Shown: piece by piece, positions 932-4,811 of the stretch
How the letters are laid out: each line of letters opens with the position of its first letter
Position numbering within the stretch: the stretch's first letter is position 1
NCBI GenBank assembly: GCA_016208305.1
Contig: JACQYI010000018.1
Span: 1-64,000, forward strand
Length of the DNA: 64,000 bases
Source: Oscillatoriophycideae cyanobacterium NC_groundwater_1537_Pr4_S-0.65um_50_18
Lineage (GTDB): Bacteria; Cyanobacteriota; Cyanobacteriia; Elainellales; Elainellaceae
Direction: 5' to 3'
The notes under the pieces: generated by a model
The model's input: only the letters and a program-made list of their open reading frames with translations
Told to the model about the DNA's origin: nothing
The model's database searches: none
Position numbers and translations under genes: made by a program

Positions 932-2266
932 CTAGAGCCTGAAAGAAGCGAGATCATCATCGCTCGTCTCTACGGCAGCAGTCAGATTCCCATTGCCTTT
1001 GACGAGCAGAGATAGCCCGTCAGGATTCGCCTCTTGGGGGATACTCAGTTGCGTCACTAAGTCTTTCCAAGAGATCTGCGGATTTTGTTGCAACACAGAA
1101 AGCAGATCCACAAAAGCCTTCACCGTGTTGCGGGGTGTCCGGAAATACGCTTCACCAATGCATTGAGAACAGTGATTCATAAAAGCCTGAATGCCTTCAT
1201 CTGGCAAAAGATATTGTGCCCGATCGCCAAAGGCAAAAACATGACGGATTTTGGTCAGCAGCACGAATAGATCCTCAGGGCTGAGGTTGCCGAGCCGTAA
1301 GACCGGATTGTTGTAGTCTACTAATCCATTCACCGCAAAACTATTTTCTGCCAAGCGGGTCTGGAGAGCCGCATAGCTATAAAGTCCGCGTCGGGTATCC
1401 ATGAGAAAATCTGGCGTACCGCCCATGATGAAGCCTAGACCCACCGATGATCCCTGAAGACAATCATTTAGGATACGCAAAATCTGCTCATAATTACTCT
1501 TTCGAGCCTGGGTATTGGCAAGCTTATAGAGGTTGACGAGTTCATCTAAGCAGATCAAAAACCCTGAGTATCCAGCCAATTTGACAAGCTGTGTTAATAG
1601 CTTCAGCTGATCGTAGACATTGGCATCATCAACAATGGTGCGCACGCCTAACGCCTGTTTCGCATCTGTCTTCGTTGTAAATTCTCCGCGCAGCCAGCGA
1701 ATTGCGTTTGCCTTTAAAGTCTCATCGCCATTGTCATGGCCTTTCCAGTAAGCGGCAATCACCTCGGCAAAGTCATAGCCCCCGATCATTTCTGACAAAT
1801 GGGCTAGCCGTTCCCGAATCACAATTTCTGGATCAATGTCTCGATCGCGCCCTTCACTCATGGCCGAAGTGACAAATCGTTCGACGATACTGGGCAAAGC
1901 CCCGCCCTCAGGCTTGGTGCGGGTTGCCAAATTTTGCATTAATTCTGCATAGAGCGATCGCGCTTGCCCTCCTGTAGCATGCAAACGGCGATCGGGAGTG
2001 AGATCAGCATGCGCCGTAACCAGCTTTTTCTCTAACGCGATCGAGCGTACCAACGAGAGAAAGAAAGTCTTGCCTGAGCCATATTCCCCGATGACAAATC
2101 GAATGCCAGAGCCACCTTCAGCCATGCGATCGAGGTCGCGGATCACGGCTTTGGTTTCTTCGACCCGCCCTACCTGAATTAAGTGCTGTCCCCGACGAGG
2201 CACGACCCCAGCTTGCAGCGATTGAATAATGGTGTCCCGGTCTTTTGCCTTAATTGTGTCTGTCAT
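932..2266 (-). CDS. DUF2791-type P-loop ATPase (BrxD-like), partner of TerB protein
   Basis: A 444-residue protein with a Walker A motif GEYGSGKT at residues 60-67 and a Walker B stretch LICLDEL with Asp241-Glu242, the layout of DUF2791 (BREX system ATP-binding/BrxD-like) ATPases. The N-terminus (RDTIIQSLQAGVVPRRGQHL) and the phrase IVDDANVYDQL are typical of the family. The ATG overlaps the stop of the upstream TerB gene by four bases (ATGA, 2263-2266), so the two are translationally coupled. DUF2791 ATPases occur in BREX variants and, with TerB-N/TerB-C proteins and a superfamily-2 helicase, in Ter-linked DNA-processing systems proposed to act in phage restriction or stress. No helicase, methylase or PglZ is present in the window. 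Role in ATP-driven nucleic-acid remodelling is inferred. Confidence 0.85.
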   Translation of the reverse strand: MTDTIKAKDRDTIIQSLQAGVVPRRGQHLIQVGRVEETKAVIRDLDRMAEGGSGIRFVIGEYGSGKTFFLSLVRSIALEKKLVTAHADLTPDRRLHATGGQARSLYAELMQNLATRTKPEGGALPSIVERFVTSAMSEGRDRDIDPEIVIRERLAHLSEMIGGYDFAEVIAAYWKGHDNGDETLKANAIRWLRGEFTTKTDAKQALGVRTIVDDANVYDQLKLLTQLVKLAGYSGFLICLDELVNLYKLANTQARKSNYEQILRILNDCLQGSSVGLGFIMGGTPDFLMDTRRGLYSYAALQTRLAENSFAVNGLVDYNNPVLRLGNLSPEDLFVLLTKIRHVFAFGDRAQYLLPDEGIQAFMNHCSQCIGEAYFRTPRNTVKAFVDLLSVLQQNPQISWKDLVTQLSIPQEANPDGLSLLVKGNGNLTAAVETSDDDLASFRL

Positions 2267-4761
2267 GCCAGCATCTCCCGCAACACGTCTGCATTGACCT
2301 CTATTGAATCATGCCCTTCAGTCACGGCCTCGTCACTGCGATCGAAGGCTGCTTCGTTGATCACTTCTAGCGCGCCATCCAGCATTAACCCCTGTTGAGT
2401 CGCGATCGCCTCTAAGGCTTCCCGTTGCCAAACCTGCTGCTGGGCGATCGCCAATAGCAAAGCAGAATGGGGCACATCTAAACCCGCAATTTCTCGAAAC
2501 ACATGAGACTTTTTGCCGCGTTTTTGAGACTTTTGAGTCTGCACTTTCTCTTTGCCCAAAGAAGCTGGAATCTGAGAAGTTTGCCCCTGAGAAGCCCGAT
2601 TGGCGGGTGTCCCTTCGGTGTCAACGAAGATATCGGCCAGTAAGTTAGAGATCTCCTGTGACTCTACCAGCTTCGATTCCACTAACCCCATATCGAGGGC
2701 AAAAGCAGCTTGCTTTTTTTTCGGCTGCGGTGGAATGGCATGTCCCGCAGTCGGCACAGCTTGGCGAACGGTAATAGGCTGATTTAGATCTGCGGCAGGC
2801 TGAGCAGACTTGCTAACAGGTCTGCCCCCTGCCGTGCTAAGACTATACATGCTAAGACTGTGAATGTCGCTGTAGAGCGTTTGGGTATCCAACTCTAGCA
2901 GTCCATAGACCTTCTCTAAAAGCTGCACTTCCTTAGGATTTACCGATCCATCCGCAGCAGCCACCCGAACCACAAATTGCCCGATCGCGCCTCGATCTTG
3001 AAGTTCAATTTGCTCCACTCTTGCCTTGAGGCTGCGCAGGGTTAGCTTATCGCTTAGCAAAACTTGAATATGGGCAGCGAGACGCGATCGCTCTGGCTCC
3101 TCTAAGGCAACCCACTCTGCCAGATGCGTCAAGAGGTACTGCTGCTCTGTGGCGCTAGGAGGCGCATCACCACTTGCTGCCACGATCGCCAGATGTGCCA
3201 ACAGGGTTGCTTCTAGGTAAGCATTGGATAATGAGAGCGGATTAGGGGCAGGCAGACGAAACAGCCCCAGGTAATTTTTTTGCGACGGGGCAGCCCCGCC
3301 CAGGCGCATGTCAGGCTCTATGCCGTAGCCTAGCAGCTCTAGAAATTTGCTCAGCCCAGTCGTTTCTGCCTTGGTCAGCTTTTCGGAGTTTGCACCCGAC
3401 CATTGCTGGATGAGCTCTTGGCCAGAAACAACAGCGATCGGTAAGGCCAGTTTGGCAATTTCGGGTTTGGAAAATTTTTGGTCTAGCCATGTCTGCAGTT
3501 TTTTGACCCATTCCCCCCCGTGGGTTGTCAGCAGGTCAGGCGGTAGTAGGGCGATCGCGCCAGGAGTGTTGCGTCCTTCGGGATTGCGCCCCAAATATCG
3601 GCTCAAAGGCTCTAGCTCGACTCGGCAAGTTTCTACGACCTCCCCAATTTTTTTTGTTTTGGCGGCAAATCGGGTGATATCAGGCAAATTGCCGATCGGC
3701 ACGACTACCGATCGACTCCAAAACGACTGACTTGCAGGGTAGTAAACAGTCGTTAGCTTCGACTTGCCCGTTTTTATCTTCATCCCTTCGCCGTATTTCT
3801 GGCCGTAGCGCAACTGAAACAGCGCTTCAAACTCGTCTTTACAGCGAGTTGTCGCCGTAGGAAGCCGAAAGCTCGACAATCTGGAGTACCAGGCCAAAGC
3901 CCAATGGGCAGGAATCGGTTGGTTTTGCTCAACGAGTTGCCCCAAACCGACTTGAAGCGAAAGTGCCTTTGCCGTCATTGGGTCAATAGTCTTGCTTAAA
4001 TCTGTTGAACACATCACCTGGCAGGTTTCCAGGAATGTTTCTGTTTTATAGCGAATGCCGCCACTGAGCGAGCTACCGCCATAACGGGCGTTTAGCCGCT
4101 CTACCTCTGCCATAATTTGTTCTAGCTCTTGGCGTTTGGCCTCGTCATGCTTCAAATCTGCCCTCAGCAGATCATGAAAAACCCGGCGTTCTAGACCATA
4201 GAAAAACAGCCAAATGTAGCCTATGTAGATATTAGGCTCACACCTTCCTGTCGAGAGCCAATGCAGGTAAGCCGCCCGACAGGCCGGGGGCATCTGGCTG
4301 TAGGAGACGGAATAGGGCATTTGCTTGCCTTCATAGTCAGGGCGATCGCGCTTCACCTTGAGCCGAGGGTTAATCAAGCTAGTCTCTGAAGCGCGGCTAT
4401 TGTTAACGGCGGCCAGTTCTTCGCCAACGTAAACCATTCCCGGAATCTTGTATCCCTCTATCTCTATGGTTTGGTTAGGGGGAATCCAACAGCGATCGCC
4501 TGACAAACCAGGCGGCATCCTCTTTTTCTCCAGCCTGGTTCCTAGGTATTCTTCTGCTGTCAGATCTGCAAGATCGGATTGCGCCAGCTCCGACAGCAGT
4601 TCCAACAGATCTTGGGGACTGCTAATTGAGTGTGGCGATCGAGCGCTATGAATACCGTCAGAAGGGCTAAGCCTATCGCGTAGCTTGCCCTTGAGTTTTT
4701 CTGGATCAGGCAGGACGATGCCTAAGTCAGCGATGAGTTCCCAAAAAGGTCTAAATTTCAT
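2263..4761 (-). CDS. TerB-N / TerB / TerB-C domain protein
   Basis: An 832-residue protein. Residues about 85-195 match the TerB-N domain (IPGMVYVGEEL, KRDRPDYEGKQMPYSVSYS, AAYLHWLSTGR, IGYIWLFFYGLERR). A small helical TerB-like core follows at about 590-650 (VRVAAADGSVNPKEVQLLEK, an acidic metal-binding-type helix pair). TerB-C occupies the end (DMGLVESKLVESQEISNLLA then GLDVPHSALLLAIAQQ and SIEVNADVLREMLA). A low-complexity linker rich in Gln/Ser/Lys lies between. It is the first gene of a two-gene operon with the DUF2791 ATPase, with which it overlaps by four bases. TerB-N and TerB-C are described as partners of helicases and ATPases in Ter-related systems. Its biochemical role is unknown; metal sensing or scaffolding of the ATPase is inference. 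Confidence 0.86.
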   Translation of the reverse strand: MKFRPFWELIADLGIVLPDPEKLKGKLRDRLSPSDGIHSARSPHSISSPQDLLELLSELAQSDLADLTAEEYLGTRLEKKRMPPGLSGDRCWIPPNQTIEIEGYKIPGMVYVGEELAAVNNSRASETSLINPRLKVKRDRPDYEGKQMPYSVSYSQMPPACRAAYLHWLSTGRCEPNIYIGYIWLFFYGLERRVFHDLLRADLKHDEAKRQELEQIMAEVERLNARYGGSSLSGGIRYKTETFLETCQVMCSTDLSKTIDPMTAKALSLQVGLGQLVEQNQPIPAHWALAWYSRLSSFRLPTATTRCKDEFEALFQLRYGQKYGEGMKIKTGKSKLTTVYYPASQSFWSRSVVVPIGNLPDITRFAAKTKKIGEVVETCRVELEPLSRYLGRNPEGRNTPGAIALLPPDLLTTHGGEWVKKLQTWLDQKFSKPEIAKLALPIAVVSGQELIQQWSGANSEKLTKAETTGLSKFLELLGYGIEPDMRLGGAAPSQKNYLGLFRLPAPNPLSLSNAYLEATLLAHLAIVAASGDAPPSATEQQYLLTHLAEWVALEEPERSRLAAHIQVLLSDKLTLRSLKARVEQIELQDRGAIGQFVVRVAAADGSVNPKEVQLLEKVYGLLELDTQTLYSDIHSLSMYSLSTAGGRPVSKSAQPAADLNQPITVRQAVPTAGHAIPPQPKKKQAAFALDMGLVESKLVESQEISNLLADIFVDTEGTPANRASQGQTSQIPASLGKEKVQTQKSQKRGKKSHVFREIAGLDVPHSALLLAIAQQQVWQREALEAIATQQGLMLDGALEVINEAAFDRSDEAVTEGHDSIEVNADVLREMLA

Positions 4762-4811
4762 CAGAAGATGCAGTCGAAACGCGATTTGACTTAGTTTATC
4801 GTTTTATGCTT

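What the first reader, a model, noticed from the sequence alone, without database searches (positions are those of the whole stretch)
932..4761. Two-gene TerB / DUF2791 ATPase operon without its usual helicase
TerB-N/TerB/TerB-C and a DUF2791 ATPase with intact Walker motifs overlap by ATGA. Known: such pairs are described with a superfamily-2 helicase in Ter-linked, possibly antiphage, systems; BREX types carry DUF2791 with methylase and PglZ. Here no helicase or other partner is adjacent: the next gene is a HIT protein after a terminator and the other side is a Rieske enzyme. It may be a minimal version or rely on a helicase in trans.
Basis: partly seen in the sequence, partly recalled or inferred. 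Interest (0 to 1): 0.6.

Follow-up and report, generated by a model that had tools for sequence, protein, structure and literature searches.

The report
Dispersed Shango defence genes in cyanobacteria
The two genes are the first two of a known three-gene phage-defence system (Shango), and the third, a helicase, is not missing but sits far away on the same genome, a scattering seen in many cyanobacteria that nevertheless tend to keep or lose the parts together.

Summary
The two genes are real: SngA (TerB_N/TerB/TerB_C) and SngB (BrxD-like ATPase) of Shango, a named three-gene anti-phage system. The helicase is not lost: a full-length SngC (915 bits) stands alone on another contig of the same genome. 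In Drouetiella hepatica both loci occupy the same separate sites. Of 291 genomes of the class, 73 have B and C, 2 only B, 3 only C, 213 neither; in 45 of the 73, B and C are on different contigs or over 20 kb apart. The association holds on an RpoB tree when linked carriers are dropped, and B and C trees match. In the class of Trichlorobacter all 7 B carriers have C next to B. So this is most likely a dispersed Shango whose parts work in trans, not a minimal two-gene system. A second cyanobacterial group has, in place of SngA, a TerB_C protein with an N-terminal hydrophobic segment. Not tested: phage defence, physical complex, mechanism.

The parts
932..2266 (-). SngB: BrxD-like AAA+ ATPase (PF10923), 444 aa
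   Evidence: Pfam E 9.3e-156; PADLOC SngB E 3e-180 against BrxD 7.9e-49
2066..2089 (-). Walker A motif GEYGSGKT of SngB
   Evidence: translation; pattern found in 62 of 62 SngB rows over 380 aa
2263..2266 (-). ATGA stop/start overlap of sngA and sngB
2263..4761 (-). SngA: TerB_N - TerB - TerB_C protein, 832 aa
   Evidence: PADLOC SngA E 1.8e-78
3862..4482 (-). TerB_N domain of SngA (aa 94-300)
   Evidence: whole-protein E 9.1e-43
2881..3198 (-). TerB domain of SngA (aa 522-627)
   Evidence: E 3.2e-8; the predicted model matches the solved Nostoc TerB 2ou3, Z 13.1, 145 residues, rmsd 7.5
2275..2727 (-). TerB_C domain of SngA (aa 679-829)
   Evidence: E 6.8e-25
4781..4810 (-). about 30-bp stretch upstream of sngA that is nearly identical in the sister species G077; possible promoter or operator
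   Evidence: read by eye from the sequences printed; not tested for function

Best explanation
This is a dispersed Shango system. SngA and SngB are made from the window operon and SngC from a gene on another contig (match G000:C60:132731-134911), and the three proteins act as one machine in trans. Shown: the genes, their intact motifs, their dispersal, their co-retention and matched ancestry. Inferred: SngB, an AAA+ ATPase like BrxD, loads or switches the Lhr/BrxHI-like helicase SngC on foreign or abnormal DNA, while SngA is the TerB adaptor/sensor that docks through its C-terminal TerB_C domain, the one SngA part kept in the cyanobacterial versions examined. In cyanobacteria the system is a long-resident chromosomal trait that is kept or lost as a unit although its genes are scattered.
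For: Full-length SngC in the own genome, the only strong one. B and C both in 73 of 291, one alone in 5, neither in 213. Dependent against independent gain/loss on an RpoB tree: LR 95.2 with 109 genomes; LR 72.6 (p 6e-15) with the 82 left after dropping 27 linked carriers (own code). Independent pairs: 7-8 same, 0 opposite, 1-2 no difference; linked carriers dropped 4-5/0/1-2. B and C distances in 27 unlinked genomes r 0.985, partial r given RpoB 0.979; partial r 0.63 and 0.60 inside groups 1 (n 12) and 2 (n 15), permutation p 0.001 each. In genus g97, G178 and G289 keep a DUF815-A' site but lack B there and lack C, while G205 has B and C on different contigs. Both sites conserved between the window genome and D. 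hepatica. BrxD-BrxHI is described as a tightly linked dyad with a possible loader role for BrxD (PMC12839542, passages); SngC groups with BrxHI, DruE and DpdJ helicases (PMC12278908, passages).
Against: No experiment. Co-retention does not prove a complex; a shared selective pressure could keep separate functions together. With linked carriers dropped, the independent-pairs test on supported branches is not significant (median p 0.06). Five of 78 carriers break the rule: G082 and G279 (B only), G163, G195, G240 (C only); for G240 the SngA contig ends just after A, the others are remnants, incomplete genomes or unexplained (G163 is 99% complete, in 440 contigs). In the Trichlorobacter class 2 of 9 C carriers have no B. 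SngA-model matches without B or C occur in G073, G124, G136, G178 and G289. No sequence shared by the sngA and sngC upstream regions was found. Whether scattering is special to Shango or general in these genomes was not tested.
Confidence: 0.75

Rival explanations
1. A working minimal two-gene system: SngAB act without any helicase, and SngC at C60 has its own separate job.
For: A-B overlap by ATGA and form a unit of their own here and in D. hepatica; C stands alone next to unrelated genes.
Against: B without strong C in 2 of 75 carriers, one a remnant and one an incomplete MAG; unlinked B and C gained and lost together; C is the matching orthologue, not a stray helicase. Genomes whose only SngC-model match at E <= 1e-100 is of the weaker type (about 440-485 bits) have no B (9 of 9).
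Confidence: 0.1
2. The same trans-assembled machine, but for genome maintenance rather than phage defence: in cyanobacteria SngABC processes damaged or stalled DNA, and the mobile Shango cassettes elsewhere are relatives used for defence. (This overlaps with the best explanation; it differs only in the purpose.)
For: Scattered among ordinary-looking genes, with one B match in 73 of the 75 carriers; B and C distances of group 2 follow RpoB (r 0.905 and 0.908). Elsewhere SngB- or BrxD-like genes sit on 681 plasmid records, 540 predicted conjugative. SngC's closest solved relatives by sequence are annotated as ATP-dependent DNA helicases (5v9x, 7lhl; Lhr by recall) and YprA.
Against: Patchy: absent from 21 of 36 genomes of the own family and variable inside genera, unusual for housekeeping; the same families are anti-phage in Pseudomonas (PMC10250203, passages).
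Confidence: 0.3
3. The unlinked pattern is an assembly or decay artefact: the operon is broken by contig ends or is falling apart.
For: 38 of 45 separated cases lie on different contigs; G249 has broken A and B; in G086 B and C both end at contig edges, so adjacency is undecided.
Against: 7 cases are on one contig, 52 kb to 5.1 Mb apart in linear coordinates; in the window genome the genes next to B (HIT) and to C are inside the contigs. Gene neighbours were inspected in 34 of the 38 and exclude adjacency in 33; the 4 not inspected (G006, G062, G170, G235) lie by coordinates away from contig edges on the side that matters. Motifs intact.
Confidence: 0.02
4. A BREX fragment: SngB is a BrxD left over from a type 2 BREX island.
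For: Same Pfam family; BrxD and BrxHI models also match.
Against: SngB model 598 bits against BrxD 165; under the NCBIfam BrxD cut-off, 161.6 < 350; no second PF10923 protein in the genome at E <= 0.001 (whether that model catches every BrxC was not checked).
Confidence: 0.02

Closest known systems
Shango (SngABC), Pseudomonas aeruginosa PA14 cDHS1, also in E. coli islands (PMC10250203, passages read)
   Same: SngB and SngC match their models over nearly full length, SngA over positions 30-523 of 528.
   Different: sngC is on another contig here; no other defence gene was recognised next to the genes; anti-phage activity untested here.
BREX type 2 BrxD-BrxHI dyad (PMC12839542, passages read)
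   Same: BrxD-like ATPase paired with an Lhr-like SF2 helicase; SngC also matches a BrxHI model at 417 bits.
   Different: TerB protein as partner; no second PF10923 protein in the genome; the dyad is unlinked.
Ter-linked DNA-processing systems with TerB_N/TerB_C, DUF2791 and helicase (recalled, no paper seen)
   Same: Domain combination.
   Different: Described, by recall, as gene neighbourhoods; here one member is elsewhere.

Membership tests
Shango | SngA (TerB protein) | tested here: met
   PADLOC SngA E 1.8e-78; TerB_N, TerB, TerB_C over cut-off
Shango | SngB ATPase with Walker motifs | tested here: met
   PADLOC SngB E 3e-180; Walker A and B patterns present
Shango | SngC helicase present in the genome, motifs intact | tested here: met
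   G000:C60, 914.6 bits, 3-718/720; GKT, DELH, SAT, QRLGRSGR
Shango | The three genes form one cluster | tested here: not met
   A-B adjacent in the window, C on another contig; therefore filed as a variant
Shango | Anti-phage activity | not testable with these tools
   needs plaque assays
BREX type 2 | BrxC ATPase | tested here: inconclusive
   only one PF10923 match in the whole genome, and it is SngB; coverage of all BrxC by this model not checked
BREX type 2 | BrxD equivalog | tested here: not met
   161.6 bits against a cut-off of 350
BREX type 2 | PglX methylase and PglZ | not tested
   not searched genome-wide

The most novel reading that the evidence does not exclude
In cyanobacteria the Shango machine is a chromosomal, trans-assembled system: its genes have been separated repeatedly (at least 12 changes of linkage state on the RpoB tree) yet are kept and lost as a unit, and one large branch has, in place of SngA, a probably membrane-anchored TerB_C coiled-coil protein. 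If so, TerB_C is the constant docking module, SngB-SngC the obligate engine, and cluster-based defence finders overlook much of the system.
Probability: 0.5. Interest if true: 0.75.

Novelty: new variant of a known kind. Interest (0 to 1): 0.6.

Why it matters
Defence systems are usually found by gene neighbourhood. Here a named system keeps its parts through at least 12 changes of linkage, so neighbourhood rules would see an orphan pair and an orphan helicase. Natural separation of AB from C gives ready-made strains for testing each part alone, and the different N-terminal part of the SngA counterpart in a second group points to TerB_C as the docking domain. The patchy but coupled retention makes the defence-or-housekeeping question directly testable by two clean knock-outs.

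Tried and rejected
Rejected: minimal two-gene system, BREX fragment and assembly artefact (see rivals). The promoter/terminator scan gave no more than shuffles. A shared element upstream of sngA and sngC was sought in two species and not found (best 14-mer score reached by 44 and 36 of 60 shuffles). PDB by sequence gave nothing for SngB at E <= 0.01 and one weak hit for the SngA alignment (2h5n, E 0.0017). Foldseek with the SngA model (mean pLDDT 75) had no match at E <= 0.001 (best 2ou3, 1.7e-3). VIA-align gave TerB 2ou3 (Z 13.1) and a weak winged-helix resemblance of TerB_C to MAGE-G1/NSE-1 and MukBEF chains (Z 6.6-7.8, which may be only a common arrangement). No clear relative of TerB_N appeared; the list tests that part poorly.

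Literature: 'Shango' with 'cyanobacteria' gave 15 papers, all listed, none on this by title. The other searches showed no such title either, but several lists were capped (20 of 292, 30 of 38, 15 of 24, 30 of 165, 12 of 62). The library holds only open-licence papers. The first Shango paper (Millman et al. 2022, recalled) was not read. Passages only were read of PMC10250203, PMC12278908, PMC11096173, PMC10952713, PMC12839542, PMC12458937.

Full report
What is there. The window is the start of contig G000:C39 of a 6.94-Mb genome in 85 contigs. ORF 2263-4761(-) encodes 832 aa with TerB_N, TerB and TerB_C; ORF 932-2266(-) encodes 444 aa of PF10923 BrxC_BrxD; they overlap by ATGA. Against PADLOC-DB they are SngA (1.8e-78) and SngB (3e-180) of Shango; BrxD is far weaker (7.9e-49) and the NCBIfam BrxD cut-off is missed (161.6 < 350). 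Shango is a three-gene TerB/ATPase/helicase system with modest activity against many phages in P. aeruginosa (PMC10250203, passages read). The flanks are HIT and Rieske genes, then protease- and TruB-like genes (these two named by reading the translations). No terminator before HIT was detected.

The helicase is in the same genome. A search with the SngC model finds one strong match, G000:C60:132731-134911, 914.6 bits over positions 3-718 of 720; the next is 78.5 bits. Its 744-aa product has DEAD and Helicase_C domains and intact helicase motifs. Its best solved relatives by sequence are 5v9x and 7lhl (ATP-dependent DNA helicases, Lhr by recall) and YprA 6znp. It stands alone between an isochorismatase-like and an aldo/keto-reductase-like gene (names by reading). 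There too AB lies beside the protease/TruB genes and C beside the isochorismatase-like gene. The split is therefore shared within the genus.

The operon is the common form elsewhere. In 10 of 10 non-cyanobacterial loci from the named-genome scan C directly follows B, and 8 of 10 show SngA upstream. In 277 genomes of the class of Trichlorobacter thiogenes, 7 have SngB (E <= 1e-120) and in all 7 the SngC match begins 8-27 bp from it; two more have C without B. Within the window's own family, A, B and C are together in G125, G159, G200 and G207.

Co-retention. Among 291 genomes of the window's class, SngB occurs in 75 (E <= 1e-60) and strong SngC in 76 (three counted by hand as fragmented); both in 73, B only in 2 (G082, G279), C only in 3 (G163, G195, G240), neither in 213 (Fisher p 2e-62, which ignores relatedness). 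Nine further genomes have only a weaker SngC match (about 440-485 bits) and none of them has B. Of the 73, B and C lie within 0.5 kb in 16, 0.5-20 kb in 12, over 20 kb apart on one contig in 7, and on different contigs in 38. For the 38, gene neighbours were inspected in 34: adjacency is excluded in 33 and undecided in G086, where both genes end at contig edges; the other 4 lie by coordinates away from contig edges. In the own family (36 genomes): both 12 (8 of them unlinked), B only 2 (MAGs 68% and 72% complete), C only 1, neither 21. SngA matches (E <= 1e-10) are in 80 of 291 and in 72 of the 75 B carriers; of the 8 without B, 3 have C and 5 have neither (counted by reading).

Relatedness. 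On an RpoB tree of 109 of the genomes (61 with B, 62 with C) B and C each need at least 19 changes and linkage at least 12. A dependent gain/loss model beats an independent one by LR 95.2 (all) and LR 72.6, p 6e-15 (82 genomes after dropping 27 linked carriers; own code). The independent-pairs test agrees in direction (7-8 same, 0 opposite, 1-2 no difference); without linked carriers it stays at median p 0.06 because only 6 pairs lie on well-supported branches. Examples: genus g7 has both unlinked genes in 2 of 5 genomes and neither in 3. In g97, G205 has B and C on different contigs, while G178 and G289 keep the DUF815-A' site without B and have no C. G082 holds a 272-aa B remnant and no C.

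Ancestry. B and C trees both split the cyanobacteria into group 1 (f1, f13, f26, with the window) and group 2 (f16, f32, f25 and others); no genome with both proteins in the two trees mixes the groups. The window's SngB is closer to Geobacter-like and Chlorobiaceae proteins (66-70% identity) than to group 2 (about 40%). B and C distances correlate at r 0.985 in 27 unlinked genomes, partial r given RpoB 0.979, and partial r 0.63 and 0.60 within unlinked groups 1 and 2. The unlinked helicase is thus the matching orthologue.

A variant partner. In group 2 the SngA counterpart (A') is a 391-501-aa protein (909-935 aa in f25) with an N-terminal hydrophobic segment (17 of 17 rows tested), coiled coil by appearance, and TerB_C as its confident SngA domain in the f32 example scanned. 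In f25 it carries WD40 repeats. In several f16 genomes it is itself away from B. In f26 genus g112 (G188, G222, G229) SngA is separate from both B and C.

Mechanism. Shown: intact motifs, co-retention, matched ancestry. Inferred: SngB loads or gates SngC on DNA, as proposed for the BrxD-BrxHI dyad (PMC12839542, passages), with TerB_C as docking module and the rest of SngA as sensor or tether. Whether the target is phage DNA, plasmids or the cell's own damaged DNA is not decided by these data; my guess is about two to one for defence.

Verdict. Ordinary in its parts, unusual in its arrangement: a known defence system whose genes have come apart repeatedly in cyanobacteria and are still inherited as a set.

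Noticed in passing
L121:3640-4980, L176:421-1926, L177:891-2066 and others: SngA counterpart A': N-terminal hydrophobic segment, coiled coil by appearance, TerB_C; no TerB_N or TerB match in the scanned f32 example; in f25 genomes also with WD40 repeats (L123:3248-6055).
   Followed up: partly
L307 (G015:C24:18000-36000): A group 2 SngB follows a DUF815-type AAA ATPase gene shortly downstream of the gene run that begins with rpoB, i.e. near core transcription genes.
   Followed up: no
L289, L290 (G178, G289): DUF815 AAA ATPase and A' remain together where SngB and SngC are absent, so A' may have a role of its own.
   Followed up: partly
class genomes G076, G083, G103, G108, G151, G158, G161, G169, G253, also G207 and G258: A second, weaker SngC-model helicase (about 440-485 bits), possibly BrxHI-like, found without SngB except in G207 and G258, which also have the strong SngC.
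   Followed up: no
window 4781-4810: About 30 bp upstream of sngA nearly identical in the sister species although the surrounding intergenic DNA differs; possible regulatory site.
   Followed up: partly
SngA model, aa 757-832 (window about 2266-2493): TerB_C is predicted as a winged-helix-like fold with weak resemblance to MAGE-G1/NSE-1 and MukBEF chains (Z 6.6-7.8).
   Followed up: no
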